Positions 33 through 64,000 of a stretch of DNA of 64,000 nt are shown one piece after another. Position 1 is the first letter of the stretch; each line of letters opens with the position of its first letter. The notes under the pieces are model-generated. The model had not been told where the DNA came from and ran no database searches. It saw only the letters and a program-made list of their open reading frames with translations. Origin of the DNA: Lumbricus rubellus (taxonomy: Eukaryota; Annelida; Clitellata; Crassiclitellata; Lumbricidae); contig OX243820.1 of the NCBI GenBank assembly GCA_945859605.1, positions 26,694,277-26,758,276 on the forward strand, read 5' to 3'. Made by a program: the position numbers and the translations under genes.

Positions 33-776
33 TTGCGACGCCGAGAGATCCTCGATCTAAGGTATTCTTCTGCCGCCCGTGGTGCTATCAGATATGACAT
101 TCTGGGACAGCTCGCGTCAAATGGTTTGCTACACTACCGGGGTACACGAGGCGGTGTTAGACGCTGCCGTCGGGTGGAAGAGACGAACGCGCAGTTGCTG
201 ACGACATCACGTGGACATGCCCTAGGCCATTGCGAATGTGGTGATGCTGCCCCAGGTGGACTTATCCCCGTGGTGGTTGGCAGAGTAGCATGTAGCAATG
301 CAAGCAGGACGCCTAAGCGGATGCCAAAAGATCTTGTTTATCCACCGATCATTGTACTGTCTAATCTGAAGCCTGGGCTCAGCGTGTCATCGCCGTCGAG
401 GATTGAACTACATCCATCGATTTTCCTCATCAACCCGACGAGCCTGGCGAAGCCTCATGCCCTGGAACACCTGACGGCTGATGTTTTAGCTCATGATCCC
501 GATATGGTGGTTGTTGTCGAAAGCTGGTTTAAGAAACATCACACCGATTCTAAGATGGCCATCAACGGATATGATTTGTTTCGTAGGGACCGAGTGGGGC
601 GGAGAAGTGGTGGAGTTGCCATTTATTGTAAAACCCAGTTTCAGACTGATATTTTCCTGCCACAGGTAGAGGTCCCACCGGAGCTGGAGATCCTGTGGAT
701 CAAAAATGGTCATCAGAGGGAATTTGCATTACGTGGCGGACATCTACCACCCTCCGAAACCATTATACAATATTGA
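33..776 (+). pseudogene. N-terminal part of LINE ORF2 (endonuclease start), frameshifted from the rest
   Basis: This reading frame encodes the beginning of the LINE endonuclease domain. From about nt 415 it shows features typical of these proteins: a leucine/asparagine-rich start, an acidic 'VVVVESW' strand with the catalytic-type Glu, and 'GYDLFRRDR' followed by a Gly-rich 'GGVAIYC' strand. Similarity stops near nt 710, and the continuation (the 'YHPP' strand and the 'GDFNQLP' motif) is found one frame over in the ORF that starts at 706. A single indel near 706-715 explains this. The residues before about nt 390 are not recognisable and may be pre-endonuclease sequence. Confidence 0.7.
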
Positions 777-3009
777 ACTTTTTATAGCCAGCATAGAGAC
801 GACCCTTGATGAAATACTATCAATGAAAGAGGATTCTCATGTGATCCTTGCTGGAGACTTCAACCAATTACCATCAGCAAAAATTCTCGAGATGGGACTG
901 CGAGCGGAGTTTGAGGGACCGTCACACGAGGGACATCCCTTGGACCGCATTTACAGCTCCGGGAAATTTTATACTGCGTGCACAGCAATTAAGTCCATCA
1001 TTAAAACTAAACACTCCGCTGTGATTACATCATCCACTCCTATCTCTGTTGATGCATCAGTGCCGACGATCTCTGGAAGAAAAACCGGCCGGTTCCGTCT
1101 ACGAACTCCAGGTCAATTTGCGGGATGTCTGGCACATCTTGGGGAGCAGAGCTGGGACTTTATTACAACAGGCAACTCACCGGCGGAAGCCTTCACTGCC
1201 TTCTATACTTACATAACAGCAGTGCTCGATCTCTACTTTCCGCTTCGAAGCATGGTGATGAAAGATAAAGATCCACCTTATATGACTCCAGCTGTAAAAT
1301 ACATGATCCGCAAGCGAAACAAACTGCGCAGGAGGAATCAGACAGAGGCTGCTGACGCTCTTTCAGGCAAGATAAATATCCTCATCACACGGAGCAACGC
1401 CGCATCTTTTGAGAGTCTTGAGCGGGGATCGCGGAACTTATGGACTGAGGTAAATCGACTGAGGGGTGATGGCCGACGTGTAGCCCAGACACCGATGAGA
1501 GGAGTCACTGCCACCTCGTTAAATGAGCACTTCGCTGAAATATCATGGGACAAACAGTATACACCGCCACATTTAAAAGCAACGGTTGTGGACTCAACTA
1601 AGACGGTGATAGATTCTATAACAACTTGTAAGCTGCTTGAGTCAATCGGAAAAACAGCTGCGGGCCCCGACGGCCTACCATCATGGTTTCTTGTGCAGAT
1701 CGCTCCGATGATAGCCGAACCGGTGGCGTACCTTTTCAACACATCGGTCATCTTCTCTTACGTCCCTCCGCAGTGGAAAACCAGCATCATCACTCCGGTG
1801 CAGAAGGTCAAGCATCCGAAGGAGGCTAGTGACTACCGCCCTATCTCGGTGACGAGTATCTTATGTCGATTGTTGGAAAAATACATTGTACATCGATTCT
1901 TCCATCCAATTTTGATTGACCCCCAGCTTAACCAGGACTTCAAAGACCAATATGCATTTCGACCGTCCGGATCCACTACAGCCGCCCTAGTGTCACTAAC
2001 TACTAACATTACTGAGATGCTGAATGAGAGTCAGTATGTACATCTAATTGCACTGGATTTCAGCAAAGCGTTCGATACAGTGCGGCATTCTTACCTGGCG
2101 GAGCAACTGGCTGAGATGCCCATCCCGGACAACGTCTATAATTGGATTATTGCTTTCCTAGAAGATCGGAGTCATGCAACCAATTTTAATGGAAACATTT
2201 CCTTCACCATAAAAATAAACTGTAGCATTGTACAGGGTTCGGGGTTAGGACCAATTGACTTTATAATAACAATATCCAAGTTTAGGCCATGCCATTCAGG
2301 AAACAGAATACAAAAATATGCGGATGATACTTATCTGTTGATTCCAGCATCAAATAGTGCTACTATCCCAGCTGAACTGGATAATGTTACGCAATGGTCG
2401 GTTACATGTAACCTTAAGATAAACTGCAATAAGACATATGAAATGACTGTCAGAAGACCTAGGGGGTGTGCAGGGGGAGGGACCGATCCAACAGAAACAC
2501 CAGGTTTAACTAGGGTTCGAAACTTAAAGGTTCTTGGTGTGATGTTGTCTGATGATCTTAGTTTTGACATGCACATTGATAAGATATGTTGCAGGGCCAG
2601 GCAGTCTCTTTATGCCTTACGTGTGCTCGCTGCTCATGGTCTAGCTGGCCTTAAGCTCCATGATGTGGTACGGGCTACTACGCTGTCTCGTCTGCTTTAT
2701 GCAGCTCCTGCATGGTGGGGGTATGCTAGGCAGCATGAAAGGGGCAGGCTCCAAGCCATAATGAATAGACTTCTTCGCCAGCATTATATTTCGGGTGATA
2801 CTCCAACATTTGAAGAACTCTGTCGCCATGCTGATAACAGTTTGTTTTCGGCGGTTCTGACAAGACCAGGCCATGTCCTCCACGAGTTGCTTCCACCAGC
2901 GAAACAAACGGGTTATAACCTGCGCCCCAGACACCATGATCGGGTACTTCCACGAGCAGACAATCAAATGAGGAAGACATTTATAACTAGAATGTTATTT
3001 ACATATTAA
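706..3009 (+). CDS. LINE ORF2: endonuclease C-terminal half plus reverse transcriptase, 767 aa
   Basis: The ORF is open for 767 codons. It begins in the second half of the endonuclease ('YHPP', then 'GDFNQLP', an Asp/Asn catalytic-type motif). The reverse transcriptase follows: 'AAGPDGLP' near residue 318, 'DYRPISV' near residue 375, 'ALDFSKAFD' near residue 449 with the first catalytic Asp, and 'YADD' near residue 538 with the catalytic Asp pair. A thumb/C-terminal region ends with a 'YNLRPRHHD' block common in CR1-like LINEs. The protein copies the element's RNA into DNA at a nicked target. The annotated ATG is only the first in frame after the upstream frameshift; the native start is upstream. 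An intact catalytic core suggests recent activity. Confidence 0.88.
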   Translation: MVIRGNLHYVADIYHPPKPLYNIELFIASIETTLDEILSMKEDSHVILAGDFNQLPSAKILEMGLRAEFEGPSHEGHPLDRIYSSGKFYTACTAIKSIIKTKHSAVITSSTPISVDASVPTISGRKTGRFRLRTPGQFAGCLAHLGEQSWDFITTGNSPAEAFTAFYTYITAVLDLYFPLRSMVMKDKDPPYMTPAVKYMIRKRNKLRRRNQTEAADALSGKINILITRSNAASFESLERGSRNLWTEVNRLRGDGRRVAQTPMRGVTATSLNEHFAEISWDKQYTPPHLKATVVDSTKTVIDSITTCKLLESIGKTAAGPDGLPSWFLVQIAPMIAEPVAYLFNTSVIFSYVPPQWKTSIITPVQKVKHPKEASDYRPISVTSILCRLLEKYIVHRFFHPILIDPQLNQDFKDQYAFRPSGSTTAALVSLTTNITEMLNESQYVHLIALDFSKAFDTVRHSYLAEQLAEMPIPDNVYNWIIAFLEDRSHATNFNGNISFTIKINCSIVQGSGLGPIDFIITISKFRPCHSGNRIQKYADDTYLLIPASNSATIPAELDNVTQWSVTCNLKINCNKTYEMTVRRPRGCAGGGTDPTETPGLTRVRNLKVLGVMLSDDLSFDMHIDKICCRARQSLYALRVLAAHGLAGLKLHDVVRATTLSRLLYAAPAWWGYARQHERGRLQAIMNRLLRQHYISGDTPTFEELCRHADNSLFSAVLTRPGHVLHELLPPAKQTGYNLRPRHHDRVLPRADNQMRKTFITRMLFTY

Positions 3010-4554: not shown

Positions 4555-4757
4555 TATATCGCACCTTCAAGCTCTCTCTACTCAGAGGCGCTCCCGAATG
4601 CAGAGCGGACACTGCATCGGAGTTTCACGCCGAAGCGCTGAGCAATCGTGAGTGAAGGACTTGCCCAAGGTCCTGTATACGCGGCGACGTGGATTCGAAC
4701 CTCGAACCTCGAACCTTCCGGCTCCAAGGCAACGACGCCACCACTACACCACGCGTA
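4555..4757 (-). mobile_element. tRNA-derived SINE copy
   Basis: Read on the minus strand, this starts with a tRNA-like head (box A like 'gtggtgtagtggtggcg', then box B 'GGTTCGAATCC' near 4690). It continues through a conserved body ('gcgcttcggcgtgaaactcc') and ends in the tail 'gggagcgcctctgagtag'. The same order is found near 6425, 18045, 24647 and 25735. Confidence 0.82.
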
Positions 4758-6424
4758 GGCCCTATAAACTACAGTACCGTTCGGGACATACATGTATTTC
4801 TCGTAGGCTTATAGACGATATACCTAATTATTTTGTTCAGACCTGGTGTGGTTTCTATAGAACGAAAACTTGATAGGTTTAATTTTTATACGACACGTAA
4901 AACAATTAATTCTGACCCAATGTTGGTCAACATTAGGATCGGCTAATAATATCGAGAAACGTACACAACGCTTGGAAGTTCAATGGCGATTTCAGGATAT
5001 GAAACTACAGCCCTACACTATTATAGGCTAGGCCTAACCTGTGTAGTTTCTGTATCGCTTCAAGCAAGTCCATGCACTATAGCGTGGGTCAGTGGGTATA
5101 ACGGGAAGATTCACCTTGTCATTGACGTAAATTAATTAGAGGATAGGCTATTCAAAGTATTCATGCAGAGTAGATAATATGTCCAGAACTCCCGAAGACA
5201 GGCAATTTCTAAACTAGGTTTGGGAGATGGTATGATTGGTATCAATGCGTAGGCCCTGCTCCATTGATATTTCCCCCGTAAAATTCGCACGAATTGCATG
5301 GGACTTGTCCATGAAAAGTCTGGCAACGTTTTCTTTCACTCACCACGAGTATAGTGTTGTAGTTCGGGGCATAATAATTGTTAGGTGACACAACATTTAG
5401 TCACCGTAGAGTTACGGAGTGCAGAGTTAAGTCCTTATATTGTTAATGTAGGCTATTATGGTGCTTCAGTGTTTGCACGAGTGCTATAGCTGGTTATAGC
5501 GTAAACGTGACCAAAGCTACGAACTCAAACTTTTGTTCTGTGCATACACTGCATGGGCTGTTGGTTTCGTTGTCCACTTGTTACTACTGATGAGCAGTTT
5601 ATGGTCACTGAGTTGATTGAATTGTAGGCCTAACTGATACTGAACTTCACGCTATTATAAGCTATTGCTGAACGAAAATGAACTGTCCATGAAACAACTC
5701 TGAACTTCTCATGAAATTGTCTTTAAAAGTAAATAGATTATCGAAAGCGACCGTAAGCCTATACGTGCGTGCATGTGTGTTTGTGTGTGGGTGTGTGTGT
5801 GTTTGTGTATGTGTGTGTTTGTGTGTGTGTGTGGGTTTGTGCGATTATTGATGGTTGAATTCTTCAATAGACCTGTTGGTTAATGTGGGATAGTAAGCTT
5901 ATTAGGTGCAGGGGTGTCAGAGTTTTTGAACGAAACTTTGTCCAAGATAAATTGATAATTATTATAGCAACTCAGTTAGCCCACGTGGATTTTCCCACCT
6001 TAAGATTATGTATACGGGGTGGACGTCATTAAATATCATGCCGCAGAGTAACAACGACATCATGTAATCATATAAACAATTAAATACGTAATTAACCAAA
6101 AATTAAGTACGTAATTAACCAAATTATCCCCTGTAAATAAATTAACAAACGAACCAATAATTTATTGTCAAAATCAATTAATGTCAATTTTTAAAATAAT
6201 AATTTATTGCTGTATTGTTATAACTTCTGAAGCTCTGTAAGCATTGATAAGCAAAACAAAACCTTGTGAAAAATCACATAAGAAATGCAATGTAGGCCTG
6301 TAATTATATATATACCTTATTGCATTTGTAGAACATTGACTTAAGAAAAACATTACAAATTAAAATATCACTTTATAGGGCTAGGAATATCTTAAATTAA
6401 ATTATTTATTTATCGCATTCGCTA
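4758..6424. other. No gene seen; AT-rich intergenic DNA
   Basis: I see no coding exon here. The stretch holds a degenerate GT microsatellite at about 5765-5840, scattered 'taggccta' words, and repeated 'gtaattaaccaaa' strings near 6090-6125. The short ORFs have no recognisable protein features. Confidence 0.6.
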
Positions 6425-6620
6425 TAGCGCCCATAAAAAGCTCTACTCAGAGGCGCTCCAGACTACAGCGCAGACACTGCATCAGAGTTTCACCGCAAAG
6501 GGCACGAGCAATTGCAAGAGAAGGACTTGTTCAGGGTCCTATACGCGACGGCTTGAGGTGGATTTGAACCTGGAGCCCTCCGGCTCCATGGCACCGAACC
6601 CACCACCACACCATCGCGCC
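6425..6620 (-). mobile_element. tRNA-derived SINE copy
   Basis: This is the same family as the copy at 4555-4757 on the same strand. The tail 'ctactcagaggcgctcc' is at the left, the body 'gagcaattgc' in the middle, and the tRNA-like head with a diverged box B near 6570 at the right ('ccaccacaccatcgcgcc'). Confidence 0.8.
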
Positions 6621-12250: not shown

Positions 12251-12832
12251 TGGGAATGCAGGTTAGATTATTATAAAATGTGTTTAAATTCACGTGCGGC
12301 GATCAATAGCTCAATGTTTCCAACAGCCTACGGCGATAAATAGCCCAATGTTTCCGCGCAAGTAAGCACGTCAGAATAATATTTATTCATGTCATAATTA
12401 GAAGTAAATAATCAAAATTAATGTATTTAGAGACCTGAAATGGAATTGGGCTATAGATCGCCGGAGTTCAGACCGCTCTATTCTGCATCTATCTGTGGCC
12501 GCCATACTGTTTACGTTCTACCGAGCCGTCAGTAACAATAACCACGGAGACGCATACAAATGACGCCGGTTGATCAACTAATCTGTCGCCGTCTCACATA
12601 ATCACCTCACGGTGCAATAGTTCTTACCTCTCTGGATCCTTCGGAAATGTGAAAAAACTCAACTTCTTTTTTCCTTTCACATTATAATAAGTATTGTCAC
12701 AATAAACGACAGAACATCCCTTGCGATTAGACGCCATCTTTGTCTGTTTCGTTACATCGTCGGTAGATGGACTCATTGCAGAATTTTGCATGGGAAGTGG
12801 GAGGAGCTTCGTATATGTCTGTAATATAATAT

Positions 12833-12896
12833 ATGTGGGAAGGAAGGGAAGGAAGGGAAGAGAGGAATGGAGAATGGAAGAAAAGATGGAAGCGGA

Positions 12897-12941
<45 letters not shown>

Positions 12942-13262
12942 TAGGAACGAATTAAGGATAAAAGGAAAGCATATAGGAGTGGATACATGAATGAAGAAAA
13001 GGAATAACGAAGGTATTGATGGACAAGAGGAAAATAACTAGAGAGAAGAAGGAAGGAAAGAATTGAAAGAAGGAAGGATAAAGTAGTGGTGGAATGAAGA
13101 CATGGAAAAAATGTGGAAGGGGGAAATTGACGAAAAGGGTGGAATGGAATCAAGGACAAATGGAGGCAAGCGGAAGGGAGGGAGGGATAGATGGAGGGTG
13201 GGATGGAGGGATGGAGGGAGGGAGGCAGGGAGGCAGGGAGAAAAGGAGGGAGGGAGGTGGGA
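12833..13262 (+). repeat. Purine-rich tract with (GA)n and (GGGA)n
   Basis: This holds a pure (GA)n run at about 12898-12938 and GGAGGGAGG-type repeats at 13165-13262. The flanking 'gggaaggaagggaaggaag' is also purine-only. Confidence 0.85.
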
Positions 13263-16354: not shown

Positions 16355-18695
16355 ATATCATCATCGTGGTCATCATCGTAGCGTCGGTTGCCAACTCTGC
16401 TCCGTCAAAACCTAACCTCAAGCCAACAAAAGCGACGGGCAGACGTGTCAACGCTTCCGAGCCTCTGGTGAAACCAGCCGCTGCCAAAAAGTCGACAGCG
16501 TTGCCGAAACCAGTCAGTCAAGAAGGTTCCGATCAACCGGAATCCAAGGGAATCCCATCCAAGGGTACTCGCAGATTTAGAAACACCACCACCACGATCA
16601 TCAATGACAACCGGACCGTTGTTAGCAGTAGCAGCAGCAGCAGCAGCGATGTTTCTTACAGCAGCAGGTGTGATCTCTGTTCCCTTCAAACTCAGGCGGG
16701 AAAGCAACGCAAGAACGACGTCAACAAGGTCCTGAAAAAGGCGCTCGCGCCAACACTGAAACTAGCGAGACAGTTGCTGAAGGAAAGCCAGGAAGTAAGT
16801 CGACATTATCTCTTATCCTCTTATATCGAAGAGTTAAGCTTACTTTACGTTACGTTAGGAAGTTATACTCTCATCTTGCTATAAATGTGTGTGTGTGTGT
16901 GTGTGAAGGAGAGAGAGAGACAGACAGACAGACAGACATACAGACAGACATACAGACAGACAGACAGACATACAGACAGACATACAGACAGACAGACACA
17001 CACACAGACAGACAGATATATAGACAGACGAAAACCGTGTCTAACATCTAGGCTATTATAATAGGCTAAAATGCTAAATGATGTTATTTTGTATTTCAGA
17101 AGAATCTCACGGTCAACGCTGAAACCTACTCACTTCTTCTGCCTTCACGTTTCAGAGAAAATGTAAGTCTCCACGATCGTAGGCCTAATAGTTATTCTGA
17201 GATTTAACAGCGCCCTTGGAGATCTCAATTGCGGGAAGCAGTTTGCTTTCAGATGCTCAGTGAAGCAAAATTCGCAGGCAGCTAAAATTAGATCCAAGGC
17301 TCAACCAGACCGCTAGGTCGAATGTGAGAATTGTGGCAAAATAATGGGGGGGTTGGGGGGTTGGACAATGATCCACTTGGAATTGGAGCGTGAAAACACA
17401 CTTCACTATGAGGCACGTGTGAGAATTGTGGAAAAATTACGGCAATCTATGATCCACCTGGAATTGGGGTGTAAAAACAAACATACTTTACTATGGTGCT
17501 GTAAGAAAGGCTGGGGGTTAAAACCCCCAAACCTCCCAGCAATTTCAAGTCATATAGCCTAATGGCGTCTATAGTATGGAACCGTCAAACATCGTCCCAA
17601 TAGTGACCTGTACACCCCCCCATACTATTCTATAGGTGCGTGTTATGGACGGTCCCTATAAGAACGCATACGGTACCAGGGTAGCATTTTTCCGCGGAAA
17701 GCAGTGTTTCGATCGCTTATAGTCTGAGTGTATAAGCCTACGTGTTAGACCTATATAGACTCAGACTCAGTTGCCTCTGAGTTGAGTGTAATATGTGTTT
17801 CATAAAATAAAGTCTTCATCTAGGGCTACATTTTCTGTTCGCGCTACAATTCTGTCTGGCAGGCTCTCTTTTGCCTGTCTGGCTCTTTTCAAAAACCTGC
17901 TTCTTCCTCCGGGGCCTTGCGCACTGGGAGCGCTTCTGCACGGTTCACATTATTAGAGGCGTTTAAAAAATGATTGAATACAATACAATATCTCTTTACT
18001 CTATAATGTCCTAATAGATAGCGCTGCTGACATCCATGTCCATCTAGGGCGCGGTGGTGCATTGGTTACGTCGATGCCGTGGAGCCGGAGGTTCCAGGTT
18101 CGAATCCATCTCAAGCCGCCGCGTATGGACCTTGAGCAAGTCCTTCGCTCGCAATTGCTCGGGCGCTTCGGTGTGAGACTCCAATGCTGTGTCCGCGTTG
18201 TAGTCTGTAGTGCTTCTGAGTAGACAGTTTGAAGGGGCGCTAGAGAAATAAAGAAATAGATAAATATATAAATAAATAAAATCTGATTCATTTTAGGGAA
18301 CGGAGCTGACGCTGGCCGATTTCCGCGCTGCCCTCGTCGGTGTATCGGCCGGACTGGACCACATCAAATGCTGCAGCAACCAGGTGACGAAGGACGATCG
18401 AAAACGATGCGAACGGGTCAAGGTCCTGATGCGGAAGGTCAAGGCCAGCGGGACTTGCCGTCTCGTCGAGATCATCGACACCCATGCTGCCCCTCTTCAC
18501 CCAACAAAAGACAGGCAGTGCGACACAGAGGCACTCCAGGCGATCGACAGCCACTTTGTGGGGCACTGTGAGACGAAGAAGGCAGTGTCTGCAACGGCAG
18601 CTCAAGGCGTTTTCGAAGCTACGGAAGTGATACTCGAGAAACTTCAGCAGCTTCTCAATCCGAAGAAGAAGAGGGCAAACGGGAAAAAAGCATAA
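16355..18695 (+). CDS. Unrecognised secreted, Cys-containing, helix-rich protein (3 exons; first coding exon not found)
   Basis: Exons are 16355-16794, 17100-17162 and 18297-18695 (TAA), all with GT-AG borders and phase-0 junctions, giving 299 residues. The first seen exon follows a strong acceptor ('ctttccttttgcag') and opens with a hydrophobic stretch (IIIVVIIVASV, then ANSAPS), read as the core and cleavage site of a signal peptide. The start codon must lie in an upstream exon joined in phase 1. Next comes a Lys/Pro/Ser-rich linker with eight serines, then from about residue 115 long amphipathic helices and a basic tail (NPKKKRANGKK). There are eight cysteines (RCDLC, CC and four singles) and sequons such as NAS, NTT, NRT, NLT and NGT (the last across a splice junction). 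I do not recognise the family. One helical segment, a short loop exon, and three helices in the last exon would fit a four-helix cytokine; this is an inference. Confidence 0.72.
16887..17030. repeat. (TG)n and (CAGA)n microsatellite in intron
   Basis: A (TG)n run at 16887-16904 passes into GA and then a CAGA/CATA tetranucleotide array up to about 17025, inside the first intron of the secreted-protein gene. Confidence 0.9.
17320..17560 (+). repeat. Dispersed repeat, two tandem partial copies
   Basis: Two units each contain 'gtgagaattgtgg', then 'tgatccac', 'tggaattgg' and 'gtgaaaacac' or 'gtaaaaacaa', with G- or C-tracts. A third copy lies on the minus strand at 34975-35110. The family is unknown to me. 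It lies in the second intron of the secreted-protein gene. Confidence 0.7.
17870..17996 (+). mobile_element. LINE 3'-end fragment
   Basis: The tail 'ctgggagcgcttctgcacgg' to 'agaggcgtttaaaaaatg' is followed by 'aatacaatacaata', as in the copies at 18805 and 35885. Confidence 0.55.
18045..18285 (+). mobile_element. tRNA-derived SINE, full-length copy
   Basis: The head 'gcgcggtggtgcattggtta' carries box A, and box B 'GGTTCGAATCC' is at about 18097-18107. The body 'gagcaagtccttcgctcgca' and 'gggcgcttcggtgtgagact' follows, then the tail 'tgcttctgagtagacag' to 'gaaggggcgctagagaaat' and an A/T-rich end with (AAAT)n. It ends about a dozen bases before the acceptor of the last exon of the secreted-protein gene. 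Confidence 0.88.
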
Positions 18696-18804
18696 TACTT
18701 GATCTTACTGCACCCACATTCCGTAGATAGCTATTTATAATAGCCCACAATAAGTGGACCAAGTGCCACTTGGTCGCTGTCTCAAGACCACTTTCTCTCT
18801 CTCT

Positions 18805-18895
18805 CTCTTGGTCTCACGCTCTGGGAGCGCCTCTGATTAGTTTGCACTTCGAGAGGCGCTATATAAAAAATTTATTGATGCAATACAATGCAATA
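18805..18895 (+). repeat. LINE 3'-tail copy
   Basis: 'ctgggagcgcctctgatta' and 'gagaggcgctatataaaaaa' give a perfect 9-bp inverted pair (AGCGCCTCT / AGAGGCGCT), followed by 'gcaatacaatgcaat'. It lies just after the stop codon of the secreted-protein gene. Confidence 0.75.
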
Positions 18896-19189
18896 AGTGC
18901 CTTACAGAAGATGAAAATGTTATGTGAATGCTATTTATTTCCTTGTATGTCGGATTTTTTGTTTGGCATTAATCTCTATCATGTAGTCTAATTTACATTT
19001 TATTCGTGTTATTCAGCTATTTATTGTTTTATCGCATTAGATTAATTATTAATTGTTGCCATTATTGTTTATTCTGTCGTTTTCTTCGTAAATTTTATTG
19101 TTCTGCAAAATGACCAATATCTTTCCGTTCAACCCATTATCTGTTCATACCTCTACACTGTCTACAGACTGAGACCCTAGGTACAAAGA

Positions 19190-19478
19190 TATATGGTCTT
19201 TGTGTGTGTGTCTTATGTGTGTGTGTTTGTGTGTCCTGTGTGTGTGTGTGTTAGCTCATTTCAAGTAAAGGTGGACTTTGACACCTCCTCTTATTCACGG
19301 ACCTCCTAGCGAACGATTTATATACTACTTATCTACTTGACAGTGATAACTGCCAACTTCTTTGCTACACAGCACAATTGCAATTTCATAATGCTCTTCA
19401 TACTAAATTCTGAAAACATGAGCCAAAACTAAACTCGAAGAAGCTCTTATCTTGCTATAATAATAATAATAATAATTT

Positions 19479-19509
<31 letters not shown>

Positions 19510-19720
19510 TTAAAAAAATAATAAAATAAAAAATTAATAAAAAATTAATAATTATTATTATTGGTGCTGCTTTAATTGTGTTCTTGCCATTGTTGTTGTA
19601 GCCATTTTATTTTCCATTATTGTTGTAGCCATTTTATTTTCCATTATTGTTGTAGCCATTTTATTTTCCATTATTGTTGTAACCATTTTATTTTACATTG
19701 TTGTTGTAGCCATTTTATTT
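19190..19720. repeat. Simple repeats: (GT)n, (ATA)n and a 27-bp minisatellite
   Basis: (GT)n with short interruptions is at 19195-19252, (AAT)n at 19455-19560, and about five copies of a 27-bp unit ('ttgttgtagccattttattt' plus 'tccatta') at 19590-19720. Confidence 0.88.
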
Positions 19721-21109
19721 CGATTTGTTCTGCATGGAGAATTTGATGTTTGGTAACAAAGTCGTGACTAGTCCTGAATTCAAACAGTAATATGCCACAT
19801 TATAATGACTGAATGAATCTGTTGTCTGCTGCCAGACTAATTGTGCCACAATAACCTTCATCAGTAGGGCCTGCCATGTACACATGAATGATGACCACAT
19901 TACTTTTGCAAGTTGCTACCAGCCACATAACGTTAACATTGTGCACATCTCAAAACTTGATACACTACATTGCCTGCATGAAATGTAAAGTACGGTAATG
20001 TAAACGATTCTGGTTGCATATGGTAACATGTGATAATGTAGATCAGGTAATGCAGTAATGTAAATGATTTGAATTGCTCAATTGATGTAAATTGTAACAG
20101 AACATCTTTAGACTTACTTTATATTGTTTACGATAGTTATTTAACTTCATTTCAAAGAACTTTAACGTCAAAGCTTGTGATTTTTAGTTTCCTCGTGATT
20201 AACACTATGTACTTTTCCAATTAGTATCAAAACATTACAATTATGAGCCATTACAGAGCCATTATGTAACAGTATTATTATCATTAGAAACGTTAAACTG
20301 TTTGTAATTAACCGCGGTTACTATGTTGTGTTTCTTTAACAGAGTTTGCTAGTCATTTTTTTTAATTTTGCAATTGTAAGCATTTACATGCAATTAATTG
20401 TTAAGCTATTGAACTGTAACTTTTTGTATACAATGTAAGTCATACTGCGATTTCTGTACATGAAAATAGATCGTCGTAAAATGCAAAACGTTCAGTTTTT
20501 AATTCATCGGTGGCAGTTTTGACAAGTTACTGTTCAACAAACACTGTTAAAACAAATAAGCGTAGTGTAACCCTCCTCTTTTATTCAGCCTTGGGATGGG
20601 CATCCCACGAAAACAGCAGTACAATCCCATGTACATCGATCTGAACACCAGACAGACGTCTTAGAAAACCAACATCTTAACGAAAACCTTAAACTAAAGC
20701 GAAAACAATTTGTGCAAATTTCTCAAAGGTGGTGTCTTTAATACTGGTACAACAATGACAACCTTTAAGCAGCCGTATCACCTTCAAATGCGATTAAAGA
20801 ATGGCCGAACAATTAATCAAAGACTAAGAAAAGTCCTAAAATTTCCCTACTTGGTATGTGCCTTCATCACTTTTGAATATGTCAGTGGATGTGAAAAGGC
20901 GAACAGGGCCACATTAAGGCTAGTTGCAGGCGCAGGTGCGGTGATTACCTTCCAAAGTAACTCACTATCCACCGGTCCACCGCTCACACATTTGCAACTG
21001 CGGGACCCTCAAAACAGCAGGCCCAGTTGCTGCAGCACCTCAAGCACCAACCTAAATGTGCGCCTGAAGGTGCAGTACCATTCCATGAACAAGAGAATGT
21101 GCAATTGAC
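19721..21109. other. No recognisable gene
   Basis: The DNA is AT-rich with repeated 'gtaatgtaaa' strings near 19990-20100. An ORF of 132 codons (20710-21108) resembles no family I know, and lies just upstream of a LINE 3' end, so it may be LINE debris. Confidence 0.5.
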
Positions 21110-23475: not shown

Positions 23476-25267
23476 CTACATCTTGTGTTCCCATAAGAGT
23501 ACCGGTATTCCCATTCCGACTTTTCAGATGAAATATTAGCACAACTGAGACTACAGGTCCAAAAGTGGAAACTTTCAAACCGCTGAAGCGTTGCAGGAAA
23601 AGCCTTTGCACGACGTCGCAAGTCACTTGAAAGAGTCGCAAGAGATTCAGTCGAATCCCTGCCAGTCGCTTCCCTCGGACTCTTCGTCAACGTCAATGCC
23701 GACGCAATGAATGCCGTGACGCAAGGCAGGGGTCCCTTTACCTTTACCTGCAGTCGAAAAACAACAGCAAAGAACGGTCACAACAAAATTTTGCCAAAAC
23801 AAGTAATCATTTTCATCTACAACTCTGTTGTAATGCAGAATGGAGTGTCTAACATAATCCCCAAAAGTTCATCCATTCATTCTGAGAATGTAAATAGCAC
23901 CTATTCAAGAGACCTACTCAGAGGTGCTCCAAGCCCGGCCACAAAAACAAGTTGATGCACATTGTCTGTCAACCTGAGTCTGGAGCTACACCCAATACTG
24001 AAGTTCACCATTTAAGGAGGAAAATTACTTTTAAAATAATTTAACCTGTTATTGTTATTAAAAGAAAACCTTGAAATCACAGTAGATCAGCATTGAGTTC
24101 ACTGCCATTTGCTCAAGTGCAAGAAAGAGCCCATTTTGACCCTCCCTCCCCCATTTAATCCAAAATCTTTGAACTACACAACTTGAAAATAGATGGGGAT
24201 GACATAACTATGATTATACACCATGAAACAGGTCTAGTTTTCACTTAAACATGTATACATTTTTTTTATTTTCTCAGGTTGGTCTACGAATTACATGCCC
24301 ATGATAATTTTTAATTCATGCTTATAGCCAAAACATCAAGGAATTCTTTAAACAATAAAAGCAACTATTCCTGCTTTACTGCACAGCATAGGCGCAAACA
24401 TGTCCTTTACAAAAGTGAAGTTTATTTAAATTAGCATTAATAAACAAAAGTTTACCTAAGACTCTGGCATGAAAGACGAGTAGAAGTTGATTGGCTTTCT
24501 GCTTGTCAAACAACGTCAGCTGTTCCTTCATAAGCTTCTCCTTTTGCGCTCTGAATTCGATCAACAGATTATGTCCTTCACCTTTCAAAACGACAATCAC
24601 ACAACTTTTACTACTTGCTGCTAAACACAAATCTCAACAGCAGTCATTGTGGGGCGCGGTGGTGGCATTGTTGCCTTGCAGCCGAAAGGTTCGAGGTTCG
24701 AATCCACCTCAAGTCGCCACGTAGGGACGTTGGGCAATGGGCAAGTCTTTCACTCACAATTGCTCAGCGCTTCGGCATGAAACTCCGATGCAAGTGTCAG
24801 CTCTGCATTCGGGAGCGCCTCTGAGTAGAAAGAGCTTGAAGGGGTGCTACAACAAGTGCACATACAAACAAACAAACATATCACATCTTCAAATGCAATT
24901 TCCAACTCCAATTCCTATTTAATTCTCCTGTATCTGTCCTACCAGCTAGACATACAGGGTGGGCTATAAAAAAGTATCCACACTTTTTATGGCCCACCCT
25001 GTATATTGCTCAATCACTCGGTCTGCTCACCATCGTCCGAGGGAGTCGCTTCAAGAACTCTGACGTTGAGGCTTTCGAGGGGATCGGACACGACGTCCTC
25101 ACCGAGCTTGTCCTTGATGCTGAACCGAATCTGGTAACGGTGTTGTATCTGGAGGAATCCAAGATGGACGCTCTGCTGACCCTCCTCGTCCGCCTGTACA
25201 ACGATCTCGGCATCGTGCTTCTGCAGCTGGTCGTCGGGAAAGTGGACCCGACCCGGTCCGTCGCTCC
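23476..25267 (-). CDS. ADISSP: C20orf27 / ADISSP-like protein (UPF0687), 3' exons
   Basis: Two exons are firm on the minus strand: 25267-25031 and 24581-24456, both GT-AG. They encode 'VHFPDDQL', a beta-rich block with 'VHLGFLQIQHRYQIRF', then a block ending 'LLLVFHARVL'. This order and wording match vertebrate C20orf27 ('VHFDEKL', 'KVGFLKILHRYEITF', then 'VTVQARVM'). A last exon is tentative at 23519-23476, giving GMGIPVLLWEHKM then stop, against GTPMLL in the human protein; its C-terminus would be shorter. The 5' coding exon (joined in phase 1) was not found between 25268 and 29.9 kb. C20orf27 has been described as a secreted adipose signal protein in mammals; in invertebrates its role is unknown. 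Introns carry SINE and LINE-tail copies. Confidence 0.72.
23885..23945 (-). repeat. LINE/SINE tail copy
   Basis: 'aatagcacctattcaagaga' then 'ctactcagaggtgctccaag' is the minus-strand form of the shared tail, with a weakened stem. Confidence 0.65.
24647..24860 (+). mobile_element. tRNA-derived SINE in the ADISSP-like gene intron
   Basis: Head 'ggcgcggtggtggcattgtt', box B 'GGTTCGAATCC' at about 24695, body 'tgctcagcgcttcggcatga', and tail 'gggagcgcctctgagtag' to 'cttgaaggggtgct', ending in (CAAA)n. It is opposite in direction to the host gene. Confidence 0.88.
24955..25001. mobile_element. 47-bp mariner-like minimal palindrome with TA target
   Basis: CAGGGTGGGCTATAAAAAAG faces CAGGGTGGGCCATAAAAAG on the other strand with a loop of about six bases. 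TA flanks both sides (24953-24954, 25002-25003). It sits about 30 bp from the donor of the ADISSP-like exon at 25031. Confidence 0.8.
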
Positions 25268-26279
25268 CTGCAATGACCACGACAGTAAGTCTAACTCAAC
25301 ATTATGTGAGACCACATGAAACAAATGCACCAACGCCCTACAGCACTTCTGTGACATATTTAAAGGAGCTGCATTATTTGCTTTGATACATGTATACGTA
25401 ACATATGTTCATAGCATGTAATAGAAGAAAGCATACTCCGTGAAATTTTTAAATAAGAGAATGTCGTCCCATCCCCTAAAAGATTCAACGACTCATTTCC
25501 TCAAAACAGAGCATTCAAAAGAATTTAAATAGCACACTTCCAAACATTTAAACAGCACTTACCAGGATTTAAAAAACACTTCTATACAGTCAAATAGCAC
25601 TTACTAGAATTTAAATAGCCAACAAAATCAAATTTCTAATCAAACCGATTGAAATCGATTCAGTGATGATTGATGAACACATTCATAATGTACAGTGTGC
25701 AATTAAAGGGAGGGTTCCAGGTTTGAATTAACCTCAATCTACCGGATAGGTAACAGTGTTGTATCTGGAGCAAGTCCTTCAATTGCAATTGCTTGCAATT
25801 GCTTGTGCGCTTTGGCGTGAAACTCCGATATAGTGTTCATGTTGTAGTCGGGAGTGCCTCTGAGTATTTTGCTTGAAGGGGCATTATAGCAAATGCGAGA
25901 AATAAATAATAGCCTATGATGTATCAAATAGAATTATGGGCAGACAGTCAGGTATGCACTGAGAATAGTTCAACAGCTACGATAAATGTAGTGTATTAAG
26001 CAAGGAAAATGTCGATCGACTCGTGAGCAATTTAACAGCGCTCGGCAAAAGAGACCTGAACAATTATGACAACAAAGTTGCCAGAAATTCAAGTCAAATA
26101 TTTACTAAAGTTCTATTAATATTTTAAATTAAAATTCTGTCCAACATTTGTGCAGCAATATATTTATCTTAAAAGTTCCATGTCTGCGATATGATGGCAG
26201 TAAAATGTAGCAGGGCTCAAGAATTCTCAAGTATCGATATAAAGTTATAAACTATATACCAAATGATACCTTCTATATA
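25268..26279. other. Intron or intergenic DNA with a partial SINE
   Basis: A SINE lacking its head lies at about 25735-25915 on the plus strand: body 'gcgctttggcgtgaaactcc', tail 'gggagtgcctctgagtattt' to 'cttgaaggggcattatag'. Repeated 'agcacttac' and 'atttaaatag' strings at 25500-25620 look like a decayed repeat. No exon is visible. Confidence 0.6.
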
Positions 26280-27429: not shown

Positions 27430-27915
27430 TACAGCCATTAGACACAAAGACAGCCATCTAAACCCACTGACAGAGGTATAAATACAACCATCCCAATGTA
27501 CTGATAGGCAGAAACAGTCATCTCAGTGTGCTGACAGGCACAAAAAACCATTTCAACATACTGACAGGCACAAAAACAACTATAGATGCCAATGTAGTGA
27601 CAGGAACAAACATGACCAGCTAAACATACTGACAGGCACAAACACAATCATCCAAACATACTGACAGGCACAAACACAACCATTCCAACATACTGGCAGG
27701 CACAAAAACAACTATGCCAATGTAGTGACAGGAACAAACATGACCAGCTAAACATACTGGCAGGCACAAACACAACCATAACAATGTACTGACAGGCACA
27801 AACACAACCATCCCACCATACTGGTAGGCACAGACACAAACATCCCAACGTACTGACAGGCACAAACACAACCAATCCAACATATTGATAGACCTGCACA
27901 CAGTGCACAAACACA
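27430..27915. repeat. 32-bp minisatellite with higher-order structure
   Basis: The unit is 'actgacaggcacaaacacaa' followed by 'ccatcccaacat', about 32 bp. A larger block with 'gtgacaggaacaaacatgac' recurs near 27596 and 27724, showing multi-unit duplication. The Cys/Val-rich minus-strand ORFs here are repeat translations. Confidence 0.88.
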
Positions 27916-36400: not shown

Positions 36401-39067
36401 CTAATGTCTCTGTCCACGCAAAACTTTCTCAAGGTCTTGGACTTTGTTCTTCTTGGAAGTGAAATCTGCTATGTCTTCTTTGCAAATTGGCACTTCCTCC
36501 AAGTCCTCCGGTAGTGACACTGGAAGTCGGCCATACAGCTCCAGCACATCGTTCGCCGTTGCTCGCGTGAACTGAAAGTGCTTGAACCTTTCGAAAGTGT
36601 TAGCTCGAGAAGACTCTTCAAGGATATGTTTCGGTTTCCCATGTTGTACACGATAATCAGTAGTTTTGCAGCTGGCGAGCTCCAGCAAGTTTTGACATTC
36701 CTGCAGCGGCTGATATTGAATGTTAGAGGTGCTGAGAAGAGACTGCGCACACTTCTTTGTTTCAGTTTTCTGTAAACTTTTCTTATCTTGAGATGAATCA
36801 ATCTTTCCAGAAGACACCTGAGCTCTTGAATTGATGTTCTCCCCTTGTGTAACAAGTCTCACAACACTGGCTACATTTGGGTGCTTGAATACCGGTACAC
36901 TTTGATTTTGTGAAGTCTGGTCAAGTTTCACACGAGCATTTTCCTTTTGTGCTTCTTTAAGCAAATCGGATCCAATGCGCTTTGGCGGCTGGACATTATC
37001 AGAAAACGCAGTGCTGCCACTTTGTTGCTGAACACCAGAAGTAGACGAAGCAACGCCATTTTGTTGCTGTGTGATCTTTAAGGAATTTCCAGCATTGCTA
37101 GGAGTTTGTTGTATTTTGCTTAAAGTAGCAGAATTGCAGTTTTGCTGCACGTTCTCAGAAGTTGTAGCATAGCTGTTTCGCTGCGGTACATTTTTTGCAA
37201 CAGTTGTAGCATCACCAACTTTTTGTTCTTTGCTCTTAGAAGGATCCACAGCTTTGCTGCTCAGTTGAAGATTTGAAGAGAGATTTATAGCACTGTTACC
37301 TGATTGGCCCATTTTTTTCAAAGCAGTTTTTTGTTCTTTGTTTTCAGAAGCATGGGTAGCATTGATCCTATTTTGGACATGTGAAGGAGCTACATCAATG
37401 CGGTTTTCTTTCTGTGAATCCTTAGAAGCATTAGCAGATATGCTGGCATGTTGCACATTCCAAGAAGAGCTTGTGGTAATACTATTTTGTATGTTCTTCC
37501 TGGAATCATTACTGATGCCTAATGGCATGCTTTTCAAAGTATCTGTAGAACTGTAAGTTTTATGCTCTACATTGTTTGGTGCACTGGAACTCACATCTTT
37601 GGTCTTTTGCTGCTGTATGCCTTTAGAAACATTTACTTGTACGGCAGAGCTATTCTGCTGCATGTTTGCCACAGCATTAATAATTGCAATACTGCTAGTG
37701 GGTTGTGTATTCTTGGAAAGATTTGCATCACTGCCATTTTTTGAGAGCAGACTGTCTGCAGCATTCAAAGAACTACCACTATTATCACTGCAACTTGGTT
37801 CACATTCACCAGTAAATGGAATTGAGGCCGCATCAGCGGTAGCCACAGTTTCAATTGCAGCACTGGTAGTGGGTTGCGTATTCTTGGAAAGATTTGTAGC
37901 ACTGCCATTTTCAGAGAGTACACTTCCTGCAGCATTCAGAGCACTACCACTCGGCTGTTGCACAGTTCTAAAAAAATCAGCACCCATGCTGCAACTTGGT
38001 TCGCATTCACCCGACAGTGGAACTGTGGCCACTTCAGCGGCAGCTCCCGAAGATAAAATCTTACTTGCATCCTCATCTGACGCATGAAGTGACATGTTCT
38101 CAAAACAACATGACGTCTCAATCAACAAAGAATCATCGATAAGATCATCGTTTACCACTGAGCAATCGACATCTACACGTACCTCTGCCTGAAGTGACAT
38201 GTTCATAGGTTCATTGCTCTGGCAAGTATCTTTATCATCTGCAACAATTATTTGACTCTTTATCTCCAAATTCTTAGGGTTGCATGTTCTCATAGCACAG
38301 GCAGAAAGTTCAAGATTCAACTCAGCACTTTTACATCTGCTCAGCTGGTCGCTGGCTTTCGCCAAAACCTCTGCAACGCTTGTTGCGTCCAACTTCTCTT
38401 TTTTCATAACGTCAGCATGAGAATCTATACGAGGAGCAGATACGTGATCGGTTGATGTTTTATTTACACCAGAAGTCGTTCTCAGATGAGTATGACTGCT
38501 TAAGCTGGCACTGTATGGCACATGTCGTGACTTTGCAACATGCTTTCCTGAGGCTTTTCGTGAGACGAAAGCAGAACCAGTCTTCTGAAATTCATCTTGT
38601 TGATCGTCGCCAGAATCCACTGTCAAGTCAATAAAAGCCACATTGTCTGTCAAGTCAATAAAAGCCACATTGTCTGAAGTAGAAGAGACGCCTGTTTTTT
38701 TGCTTCCATTGTCAGTCTCAGTTGAATTTTTCTTGGCAAGTAAATGAGAGTCTGACATTTCAGAGTCAACCTTCTGGTCTTCCATCAGATTTTTGCTTAC
38801 TGTTTCTGCTGGCATGCTTGCTGCCTTGGAGACCTCAAGGTCTTCATTTCCCAACTCTGGTGAAAACGTGGATATTTGTATGTTCTGTGATTGCAATTCT
38901 GCAGCACTTCCTCCAGTCCGTGTATCAGAAACCAAGGAATTCTTAGTCTCTTTATTTCCCAAATCTGAGGAACTGGTTGAACTGCTGTCACTTAATTGGC
39001 ACTTTTCAATCACTGGAGCAGACAAAATGTTCAACACTTCCTGCTCGAATTCTTTGCCCTGGTCCAT
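36401..39067 (-). CDS. Unrecognised 888-aa Ser/Asn/Gln-rich protein with tandem SUMO-interaction-like motifs
   Basis: One large exon on the minus strand encodes 888 residues from ATG at 39067 to TAG at 36401. The ATG has a good context (GTGATGG). An acceptor ('ttggttttag') lies at 39080, so at least one upstream exon exists; the four codons between are open and could extend the protein. Most of the chain is low-complexity and probably disordered. At about residues 130-158 the nine-residue string DNVAFIDLT occurs twice in tandem and then continues to VDSGDD, resembling a SUMO-interacting motif (hydrophobic core IDLT followed by acids). About residues 340-465 contain a 57- to 66-residue internal duplication sharing GECEPSCS and NLSKNTQPT. 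The C-terminal 65 residues (from NTFERFKHF) look folded and charged. I do not recognise the family. Confidence 0.78.
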   Translation of the reverse strand: MDQGKEFEQEVLNILSAPVIEKCQLSDSSSTSSSDLGNKETKNSLVSDTRTGGSAAELQSQNIQISTFSPELGNEDLEVSKAASMPAETVSKNLMEDQKVDSEMSDSHLLAKKNSTETDNGSKKTGVSSTSDNVAFIDLTDNVAFIDLTVDSGDDQQDEFQKTGSAFVSRKASGKHVAKSRHVPYSASLSSHTHLRTTSGVNKTSTDHVSAPRIDSHADVMKKEKLDATSVAEVLAKASDQLSRCKSAELNLELSACAMRTCNPKNLEIKSQIIVADDKDTCQSNEPMNMSLQAEVRVDVDCSVVNDDLIDDSLLIETSCCFENMSLHASDEDASKILSSGAAAEVATVPLSGECEPSCSMGADFFRTVQQPSGSALNAAGSVLSENGSATNLSKNTQPTTSAAIETVATADAASIPFTGECEPSCSDNSGSSLNAADSLLSKNGSDANLSKNTQPTSSIAIINAVANMQQNSSAVQVNVSKGIQQQKTKDVSSSAPNNVEHKTYSSTDTLKSMPLGISNDSRKNIQNSITTSSSWNVQHASISANASKDSQKENRIDVAPSHVQNRINATHASENKEQKTALKKMGQSGNSAINLSSNLQLSSKAVDPSKSKEQKVGDATTVAKNVPQRNSYATTSENVQQNCNSATLSKIQQTPSNAGNSLKITQQQNGVASSTSGVQQQSGSTAFSDNVQPPKRIGSDLLKEAQKENARVKLDQTSQNQSVPVFKHPNVASVVRLVTQGENINSRAQVSSGKIDSSQDKKSLQKTETKKCAQSLLSTSNIQYQPLQECQNLLELASCKTTDYRVQHGKPKHILEESSRANTFERFKHFQFTRATANDVLELYGRLPVSLPEDLEEVPICKEDIADFTSKKNKVQDLEKVLRGQRH

Positions 39068-39644
39068 CACTGATATCTTCTAAAACCAAATCAAAACAGT
39101 CTCAGAATTTCAGCAGAATTTGCCTAAATTTATTACAAGTGGCTTTACATTTTACACCTAAGCACAAAACAACCAGGGCAACAGTACTGTATCACAGCAT
39201 GGCCCTGTAGCTTTTTGTATGCTAGTCGACAGTTCGATAAGGACTACAGAATGCCTTCGAATAAGTGATACTCTGATAACTACAGATCTATTCGATCCAA
39301 CAGAGTCGTGTTTGGGGAATCTATCATTTTAGCACTCCATTTCATGTGCCCAATGCAGCATTATTTTTTTCTCAATCCAAGCAGCAGCATTCTTTCTCAG
39401 TCTGACTTCAACTTTGGCATGAATCCGTTTAGTCAAACCAGCTCTATTTAGGCAAGAATTTTTTGGATCAATCCAGCCTGTTTTTGAGTAATAATTATTT
39501 CTTCATCGATCCGACTTCTATTTAAATAACAATTATCTTTCATTAATCCAGCTCCAAATTAAGCAAGAATCTTTTCATTGATCACACTTCGGTCATCAAT
39601 CATTTTAACAATTTTAATTATTCGCCATTCATGGGTTTGTGCGA

Positions 39645-41265: not shown

Positions 41266-42157
41266 GTCTAGTACTCTAGTTGACCACTAAATCAAGTAAA
41301 GGTGAGACGGTTGATTAAGGGGGGTTCAACCCCGTAATCTTTCTTAGGACGTCATAGTCGAGTCTTCATTGCAAACCAAATCTTCACTTGTTGAGAATGC
41401 AGAGCAGAGGACAGAAAGCCTTGAGGAGCTTCCAATTTGACAGGATGGGAAAATTACACATATAATTGAATCACAAATTGCCACTTGCGCCGTAATGTAT
41501 ACTACAATGAGCCAGCGATTCGTTAGGCCTACGTCTCAACTAAAGTTTCAAGTAGGCCTGTAATTTCGGTGTCATCAGATCAACATCATTGATTGTCAAA
41601 CGGTTAATGACGTCATCTTGCAAAACAAACGACACCAGGTCTTATGACTTTTCCATGGTAACCGATTAACGTGAATCTGAGAATACAAAGTTTATCTTAA
41701 GATTTCTACTAAAATGTACGCTTAAATATTCGATTTCATATTTGTTTTCGACGCATATTTTGGTAATGTGACAAGTTCACAGGCTAGAAGATAAATTATC
41801 AGGCCTACAAAGTATATCAATGAATCTGCAAACCGTTATCGAAATATACGAAGGATCCTTCGGGACGGTGAGAATAACTGATTAACCTATTATACGCCTA
41901 CGCCTATTGATTCTCTATGATTCTCAAGAGTCAAGACTCAAGAGACAGATATTCGACTACCATAATTCATAAATGAGGATTTAACATCCTATAGGCCCTA
42001 CGACCCTACAAAATCATCATCATCATCATCGTCTTCATCATCTGGCGGCGATTGCTAGCCTACGAATAAATAACCTCCAATGTCCGTCTTTTGTTAAGTC
42101 CATTGCTCCCTTAGTGTCAGCACATGTGATGCCATGTCCACATTCGAATACGAACAG
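41266..42157. other. No gene seen
   Basis: Non-coding, with (ATC)n at 42010-42030 and a few 'taggcct' words. No exon or transposon end is visible. Confidence 0.45.
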
Positions 42158-42404
42158 CAAGGTATGAGAAAGTCACCAGAGGAATTATAGATCAGTCATG
42201 GATTTATACACTCACAGAGGATTATTAACAGCAGGGTAAGAGAAAGTCACCTGATGGATTATAGATCAGTCATGGATTTATACACTCACAGTGGATTATT
42301 AACAGCAAGGTAAGAGAAAGTCACCTGAGGGATTATAGATCATCTTGCAAGGTAAGAGGTCACAGTTGTATCATAGATCAGTCATGGATTTATACACTCA
42401 CAGA

Positions 42405-42720
42405 CATAGGCGTAGGGGACATTTGAGCGTTGGGGGGGCAAAAATGAGACTTTTGCCCGAAAATTTTTTTTTCATCCGGCCGAAATCTTAAGAAAAATTC
42501 CCGTTACGTTTGCCCGAAAATTCTGACGACCTTTTTTAGTCAACCGACCTTTTTTGTTCGGGCAAGTCTGATTTTTCGGGCAAAAAGACCCGGAAAAAAT
42601 GGAAAAAAGTAAATTTTGTTAAAACTTTTTTTTTTCGGGTCTTCTTGCCCGAAAAATCAGACTTGCCCGAAATTTGGGGGGGCATTTGCCCCCCCTGGAC
42701 CCCCGTCTCCTACGCCTATG
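42405..42720. mobile_element. 316-bp inverted-repeat element inside the satellite, perfect 8-bp target duplication
   Basis: Ends are CATAGGCGTAGGGGAC and the reverse complement of CATAGGCGTAGGAGAC. Flanks are CTCACAGA at 42397-42404 and 42721-42728. Inside, 'cttgcccgaaaa' and 'ttttcgggcaag' form a large hairpin. The ends resemble 9009-9316. Confidence 0.92.
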
Positions 42721-43027
42721 CTCACAGAGGATTGTTAATGTTCAGCAAGGTAAGAGAAAGTCACTTGAGCGATTATAGATCAGTCATGGATTTATACATT
42801 CACAGTGGAATATAAACTGCAAGGTAAGAGAAGGTCACTAGTTGGATTATAGATAAGTCATAAATTTATACACCCACAGTGGAATATTAACAGCAAGGTA
42901 AGAGAAGGTTACCCGAGGGATTATAGATCAGTCTTGGATTTATACACTCACAGTGGATTGTTAACAGCAAGGTAAGAGAAAGTCACCTGAGGGATTATAG
43001 ATCAGTCATGGATTTATACACTCACAG

Positions 43028-43065
43028 CAAAGATATTAGAGTCGTCTACGACTCTAATATCTTTG
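43028..43065. mobile_element. 38-bp perfect palindrome inserted in the satellite
   Basis: Two 18-bp arms (CAAAGATATTAGAGTCGT and its reverse complement) surround a 2-base spacer. CTCACAG flanks both sides (43021-43027 and 43066-43072). It looks like two transposon ends with the interior lost. The target is the same satellite position as that of the element at 42405. Confidence 0.8.
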
Positions 43066-43745
43066 CTCACAGTGGATTGTTAACAGCAAGGTAAGAGAAA
43101 GTCACCTGAGGGATTATGGGTCAGTCATGGATTTATACACTCACAGTGGATTGTTAACAGCAAGGTAAAAACGTCACCTGAGGGATTATAGATCAGTCAT
43201 GGATTTATACACTCACAGTGGATTGTTAACAGCAAGGTAAGAGAAAGTCACCTGAGAGATTATAGATCAGTCTTGGATTTATACACTCACAGTGGATTAT
43301 TAACAGCAAGGTAAGAGAAAGTCACCTGAGAGATTATAGATCAGTCTTGGATTTATACACTCACAGTGGATTGTTAACAGCAAGGTAAGAGAAAGTCACC
43401 TGAGAGATTATAGATCAGTCTTGGATTTATACACTCACAGTGGATTGTTAACAGCAAGGTAAGTAAGAACGTCACCACAAGAATTATAGATCAGTCATGG
43501 ATTCATACACTCACAGTGGAATAGTAACTGCAAGGTAAGAACATGTCAGCAGAAAGATTATACACAAGATTACACAGTCGTGGATTTATACACTCACATA
43601 TGGCACCATCATCAAGGTAAAAAGTAATCAGATGGATTTGATAAGCAATGGATTAATTTATAATTTTATATGCCTTTGAGAACTAGCAACAAGGTAAGAA
43701 AGACTAAGATACGGATTCGATCAGCCATAGACTTAAATAATCCTA

Positions 43746-52699: not shown

Positions 52700-64000
<11,301 letters not shown>

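What the first reader, a model, noticed from the sequence alone, without database searches (positions are those of the whole stretch)
16355..18695. Candidate undescribed secreted helical protein with cytokine-like gene layout
Three exons joined in phase 0 encode a secretory N-terminus, a Ser/Pro/Lys linker with several N-glycosylation sequons, eight cysteines and four predicted amphipathic helices, then a basic tail. One helix lies at the end of the first seen exon, a 21-codon exon forms a loop, and three helices lie in the last exon. This recalls LIF/CLCF1-type class I cytokine genes, but no sequence match is recognised, so the link rests on layout only.
Basis: partly seen in the sequence, partly recalled or inferred. 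Interest (0 to 1): 0.75.

Follow-up and report, generated by a model that had tools for sequence, protein, structure and literature searches.

The report
Orphan secreted helical protein gene
An invertebrate, probably related to annelid worms, seems to carry a real gene for an unrecognised secreted and mostly helical protein whose gene layout resembles that of immune cytokines, but whether it is one could not be shown.

Summary
The exons are there as described: 16355-16794, 17100-17162 (21 codons) and 18297-18695, joined in phase 0. Such a chain is rare by chance: 0 of 1129 shuffled windows at thresholds set after seeing it, 4 of 1129 at looser ones. The 299-residue partial product has a leader core, a disordered Ser/Pro/Lys segment, eight cysteines, five sequons and a basic tail. 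AlphaFold2 on single sequences gives one confident long helix ending the first exon; the last exon is helical only at low confidence (mean pLDDT 47.8), with no meaningful fold match. No credible relative was found, though the database held a 97%-identical relative of the neighbouring ADISSP gene, which places the animal among spiralians, outside the mollusc group. Verdict: a probably real orphan secreted helical protein gene. A cytokine-like ligand is my leading mechanism (about 0.3); membership of any cytokine family is untested. The whole-genome search did not complete.

The parts
16355..16794 (+). second coding exon (first one seen): end of signal peptide, disordered Ser/Pro/Lys segment, helix A; upstream intron phase 1, downstream intron phase 0
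   Evidence: chance test; GC and codon usage
16360..16392 (+). hydrophobic leader core (residues 2-12), read as signal peptide core
   Evidence: AF2 helix 2-12; sequence shows IIVVIIVASVA before NSA; the underlying DNA is close to an ATC/GTC simple repeat
16402..16668 (+). residues 16-104: Ser/Pro/Thr/Lys-rich segment predicted disordered, three of five sequons, one minimal RxxR site (RRFR, residues 72-75)
16693..16788 (+). predicted long helix A (residues 113-144)
   Evidence: mean pLDDT 90 and 93 over residues 121-130 and 131-140; amphipathic, p 0.009
17100..17162 (+). 21-codon exon, phase 0 at both ends, one sequon; would be the loop after helix A
18297..18695 (+). last coding exon with stop: 132 residues, six Cys, five low-confidence helices
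   Evidence: GC by codon position p 7e-5
18591..18656 (+). candidate helix D (residues 266-287)
   Evidence: low confidence; amphipathic, p 0.018 for residues 263-288
18657..18692 (+). basic C-terminal tail NPKKKRANGKKA
17163..18296 (+). intron holding a dispersed repeat (about 18048-18245) with further copies elsewhere in the window
   Evidence: self matches of 72-80% identity at 6422-6620, 4557-4752, 24652-24849, 25765-25909

Best explanation
A single-copy (in this window), protein-coding gene of a spiralian animal makes a secreted, basic, probably N-glycosylated and disulfide-linked protein. A leader sends it to the secretory pathway; a disordered Ser/Pro/Lys segment, perhaps trimmed at an RxxR site, precedes a helical domain of about 190 residues; basic stretches may hold it on the cell surface or matrix. 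My leading mechanism is that the helical domain is a diffusible ligand that works like a four-helix cytokine: one long helix A, a loop exon, then helices in the last exon, binding a cell-surface receptor. Shown: exons, phases, composition, one confident helix. Inferred: signal peptide, glycosylation, cleavage, disulfides, bundle, receptor, signalling.
For: Only chain of its kind in the window at two of three settings and rare in shuffles. Phases 1-0-0 with helix A at the end of the leader exon. In print, helical cytokines are hard to find by sequence, and phase-0 introns (IL10 family, IL3, IL21, IFNL1) plus a very short first coding exon closed by a phase-1 intron (IFNL2/3) help to recognise them (PMC2654155, passages). 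Secreted-protein features and long helix. Helices between C and D in the weak model would fit the short CD-loop helix described for IL-6 (PMC7378365, passages). Jak-STAT signalling is reported for earthworm transcriptomes (PMC9756803, passages) while IL-6-type ligands are unknown in invertebrates (PMC13203501, passages).
Against: No bundle is shown: last exon mean pLDDT 47.8, pTM 0.37, best PDB fold match E 1.2. Helices B and C are not significantly amphipathic. No cytokine family match. The only PDB sequence matches below E 0.01 are to repeat proteins of the pentatricopeptide type. Phase-1 introns are generic in signal-peptide genes. First exon and transcript not seen. No receptor or pathway gene of this genome could be examined. 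Orphan secreted proteins are far commoner than cytokines (recalled).
Confidence: 0.3

Rival explanations
1. An orphan secreted structural or coat protein (mucus, tube, egg coat, cuticle or matrix): the Ser/Pro/Lys segment and basic tail bind polyanions, the helical Cys-rich part cross-links.
For: Strongly basic (pI 9.9), Ser/Thr/Pro/Lys-rich disordered segment, basic tail, eight Cys; no homologue at all, usual for fast-evolving coat proteins.
Against: A confident 32-residue helix and about 190 residues of mixed, non-repetitive sequence are more than such proteins usually need (inference).
Confidence: 0.2
2. A secreted defence effector: a basic, amphipathic, disulfide-linked helical protein that acts on microbes directly.
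For: pI 9.5 for the helical part, amphipathic basic helix A, eight Cys.
Against: Long for an antimicrobial peptide; no matching family in Pfam.
Confidence: 0.15
3. A true member of the vertebrate-type class I cytokine superfamily (homology, not only likeness), hence a spiralian counterpart of IL-6/LIF-type ligands or of insect Upd.
For: Inferred phase pattern 1-0-0, helix A position, size, secretion. Upd shows that protostomes have such ligands (PMC5385356, passages).
Against: No family match, no fold, and a survey that included annelids found IL-6 family cytokines only in vertebrates, although it used BLAST at 30% identity, which would miss such a protein.
Confidence: 0.1
4. A precursor cut at basic sites into smaller hormone-like peptides.
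For: RRFR at residues 72-75 and dibasic sites at 13 positions.
Against: Few sites are flanked as in amidated peptides and none repeats; most dibasic sites lie inside predicted helices (inference).
Confidence: 0.1
5. Not a working gene: a pseudogene or chance chain of open stretches.
For: No start exon found, no transcript, no homologue; leader core and Ser run rest on simple-repeat DNA; codon preference of the last exon hardly differs between two frames.
Against: Shuffle test, exon GC, codon-position signal in the last exon, no internal stop or frameshift.
Confidence: 0.1

Closest known systems
LIF/CLCF1 group of class I (IL-6 family) cytokines
   Same: Secretory leader, helix A at the end of the exon that also holds the leader, most helices in the last exon, phase-0 internal junctions; CLCF1 has three exons and a 225-residue product with a signal peptide (PMC8780587, passages; the phases of LIF and CLCF1 are recalled).
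   Different: No sequence or fold match; an extra 21-codon exon; a disordered segment of about 90 residues before helix A; eight Cys; an invertebrate host.
Class II helical cytokines (IL-10 family, lambda interferons)
   Same: Phase-0 introns; IFNL2/3 have a very short first coding exon closed by a phase-1 intron (PMC2654155, passages).
   Different: Those genes have five or six exons that cut between helices; here B to D would share one exon. No match in Pfam.
Insect Unpaired (Upd) ligands of Domeless
   Same: Secreted protostome ligands modelled as four-helix bundles without detectable homologues in other invertebrates (PMC5385356, passages).
   Different: No sequence of Upd was compared here; relation untested.
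Oyster interferon-like protein CgIFNLP
   Same: A spiralian secreted immune factor said to resemble class II helical cytokines in structure with low sequence identity (PMC9756803, passages).
   Different: Not compared by sequence or fold here; listed as not identified in annelids in that review.
Pentatricopeptide and other alpha-solenoid repeat proteins
   Same: Residues about 130-166 weakly resemble the designed and natural helix-pair repeats (E 1.3e-5 for the helical part; 0.0013 for the whole).
   Different: No single stretch passed on its own for the four solenoid rows, so the score is a sum over repeats; one helix pair only, behind a secretory leader; no Pfam match.

Membership tests
class I helical cytokine (IL-6/LIF type) | four-helix bundle, up-up-down-down | tested here: inconclusive
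   Exons could only be modelled apart: helix A confident, last exon pLDDT 47.8, no fold match.
class I helical cytokine (IL-6/LIF type) | sequence match to a family profile | tested here: not met
   Pfam at E up to 10: only SR-25 (0.48) and GNVR (0.13), both below cut-off. Weak evidence, since such cytokines often escape sequence search.
class I helical cytokine (IL-6/LIF type) | phase-0 introns after a short first coding exon with a phase-1 intron | tested here: inconclusive
   Phases 0, 0 seen and phase 1 upstream inferred; the first exon itself not found.
class I helical cytokine (IL-6/LIF type) | secretion by signal peptide | tested here: inconclusive
   Hydrophobic leader core and helix but start codon and n-region not seen.
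class I helical cytokine (IL-6/LIF type) | binds a cytokine receptor with CHR and signals through JAK/STAT | not testable with these tools
   needs protein and cells
class I helical cytokine (IL-6/LIF type) | cognate receptor gene in the same genome | not tested
   whole-genome search did not answer in 15 tries
pentatricopeptide repeat protein | tandem 35-residue helix-pair repeats | tested here: not met
   Pfam finds none; PDB matches cover one pair only, residues about 130-166.

The most novel reading that the evidence does not exclude
This is a spiralian four-helix cytokine, the missing ligand type for gp130/Domeless-like receptors in annelid-like animals, kept recognisable only by gene layout after its sequence diverged beyond detection.
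Probability: 0.15. Interest if true: 0.85.

Novelty: new member of a known kind. Interest (0 to 1): 0.4.

Why it matters
A 2026 survey reports IL6R-like receptors back to molluscs and JAK/STAT back to sponges but IL-6 family ligands only in vertebrates (PMC13203501, passages). A spiralian helical ligand would fill that gap and show that gene layout can find cytokines that sequence search misses. As it stands, the gene is one more orphan secreted protein, a kind that animal genomes hold in large numbers (recalled), with a layout that makes it worth a direct structural test.

Tried and rejected
Homologue searches: whole 299 residues, 2635 candidates, none at E up to 1; residues 100-299, 958 candidates, none at E up to 10. 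Control with the neighbouring ADISSP gene: 54 proteins among 72 candidates, the best 97% and 77% identical and unnamed, best named Capitella teleta 59%. So the database reaches close kin of this animal, but the candidate is absent; that is weak evidence against broad expression or conservation, since no identical species was shown. Viral contigs: 25 pattern matches, no relative.

Paralogues: none in the window by tblastn of the protein; exon DNA is unique here. First exon: ATGs with a phase-1 donor upstream gave only weak or odd candidates; a TATA-like site at 15592 is followed by an ATG near 15651 that meets a stop at once in the genomic frame, and splicing at the next GT gives the wrong phase. 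Rejected as the start. Rfam: 0 matches at gathering score; tRNA genes: 0.

AU-rich 3' elements as a cytokine hint: TATTTAT occurs 3 times in 18696-20560 and 24 times in 64 kb; about 0.7 expected, too weak to use. Saposin, stanniocalcin, phospholipase A2 and GFR-alpha-like cysteine patterns were considered by eye from recalled spacing and dropped; Pfam agrees. Fold search on the low-confidence model was run once (95 matches at E up to 10, 50 listed, none under 0.001; one prolactin chain at rank 42, E 5.9, not meaningful).

Literature: ten searches answered (one search found no paper). In them I saw no annelid four-helix ligand, but only listings and passages were seen and most subscription papers are not held.

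Full report
What is there. Both donors read GTAAGT. The two internal junctions are phase 0. The first exon seen opens with two bases that complete a codon, so the intron before it is phase 1 and the start codon lies in an unseen exon. The partial product has 299 residues, 8 Cys and 5 sequons.

Is it chance? A script looked for chains of acceptor, long open exon, GTRAGT donor, small middle exon, GTRAGT donor and long open last exon on both strands (first version, with 60 shuffles and no chain). The window gives this chain alone at 140/125 and 100/100 codons, and one more variant with a different last acceptor at 80/80. Of 1129 local shuffles, 0, 4 and 24 held any chain. The design was made after seeing the gene, so the looser figures are the fairer ones. 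Exon GC stands above the window. The codon-position signal is clear in the last exon and weak in the first. Codon preference, trained on three other stretches of the window, favours the stated frame, but in the last exon only slightly over another frame (0.157 against 0.142). I take the gene as real with about 0.9.

What protein. The first exon encodes a hydrophobic stretch IIIVVIIVASVANSA, then about 90 residues rich in Ser, Thr, Pro and Lys, then a long helix. AlphaFold2 on that exon alone gives helices 2-12 and 113-144, mean pLDDT 61.3 overall and 90 and 93 over residues 121-130 and 131-140. The last exon alone gives five helices at mean pLDDT 47.8 and pTM 0.37, so its fold is unknown; the best PDB fold match has E 1.2. 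Of my five chosen helix segments, A and D have a hydrophobic moment above shuffles (p 0.009, 0.018), while B, C and the short one do not (0.35, 0.39, 0.47). The protein is basic (pI 9.9 after the leader). Two doubts: the DNA under the leader is close to a simple repeat, and so is the Ser run.

Relatives. None credible. The protein database gave nothing for the whole or for residues 100-299. Pfam gave only sub-threshold chance matches, NCBIfam none. The PDB sequence search gave 3 rows for the whole (best a designed pentatricopeptide protein, E 0.0013) and 5 for the helical part (best the same, E 1.3e-5). In the four solenoid rows no single stretch passed on its own, so repeats add up the score of one helix pair around residues 130-166. 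I read this as likeness of a helix pair, not membership, but it is the only sequence signal there is and it does not point to cytokines.

Which animal. The neighbour on the minus strand is ADISSP (Pfam DUF4517, E 1.6e-18 for one exon; two further exons read by eye). The joined query found 54 proteins among 72 candidates: the two nearest, 97% and 77%, are unnamed, and the nearest named one is from Capitella teleta at 59%. A tree of 25 rows groups the window with those two (98/93) and leaves them outside the group that holds the molluscs; the tie to Capitella or Helobdella is unsupported. So the animal is a spiralian, annelid-like by elimination, not a vertebrate.

How it may work. The leader, sequons, paired Cys number and basic stretches fit a secreted glycoprotein. 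The layout fits helical cytokines: in print, phase-0 introns are shared by the IL10 family, IL3, IL21 and IFNL1, and IFNL2/3 add a four-residue first exon closed by a phase-1 intron (PMC2654155, passages). That LIF, IL-6 and growth hormone genes follow phases 1-0-0 is recalled, not looked up. Against this, phase-1 introns are the commonest class in signal-peptide genes (PMC1626468, passages), and the first paper says that even a dedicated fold-recognition score picked out known cytokines for only about 13% of the higher-scoring human proteins. I therefore put a cytokine-like ligand at 0.3 as the leading single mechanism, true superfamily membership at 0.1 as a rival in its own right, and share the rest among coat or matrix protein, defence effector, peptide precursor and non-gene.

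Known context. IL-6 family cytokines were reported only in vertebrates, with receptors traced to molluscs (PMC13203501, passages). Upd ligands of flies are modelled as four-helix bundles and escape BLAST elsewhere (PMC5385356, passages). An oyster protein is said to resemble class II helical cytokines, with none identified in annelids, and Jak-STAT components are reported in earthworms (PMC9756803, passages). An IL-6-like activity from a sea star appears only as a cited title (PMC8226699).

Limits. The genome search did not answer in 15 tries, so paralogues, receptors and the first exon could not be sought beyond the window. Structure prediction could not take the spliced protein under its rule, so the decisive fold test remains open.

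Noticed in passing
window 23647-25295, minus strand: ADISSP (C20orf27, DUF4517) gene, converging on the candidate gene; one exon matched by Pfam, two more read by eye, relatives and tree.
   Followed up: yes
window 670-3009, plus strand, with an endonuclease-like open stretch at 3-773: Non-LTR retrotransposon remains: reverse transcriptase (Pfam RVT_1 E 2.1e-28) and endonuclease.
   Followed up: partly
window 36401-39079, minus strand: 892-residue open stretch with the highest codon score in the window (it was also in the training set); Ser-rich, no Pfam match at E up to 10, one chance-level NCBIfam row.
   Followed up: partly
window 12627-13037, minus strand: Start of a THAP-type zinc finger, below Pfam's cut-off (E 0.0023, 19.1 against 23.9 bits); likely one exon.
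   Followed up: no
window 56276-56581, plus strand: Exon-like stretch matching ABC_membrane_2 (E 1.1e-7).
   Followed up: no
window 18048-18245, with copies at 4557-4752, 6422-6620, 24652-24849, 25765-25909: Dispersed repeat of about 200 bases, 72-80% identical, one copy inside the candidate's last intron; looks SINE-like by eye.
   Followed up: partly
window 42153-43562 and 27443-27888: Tandem arrays of 74-base and 32-base units.
   Followed up: no
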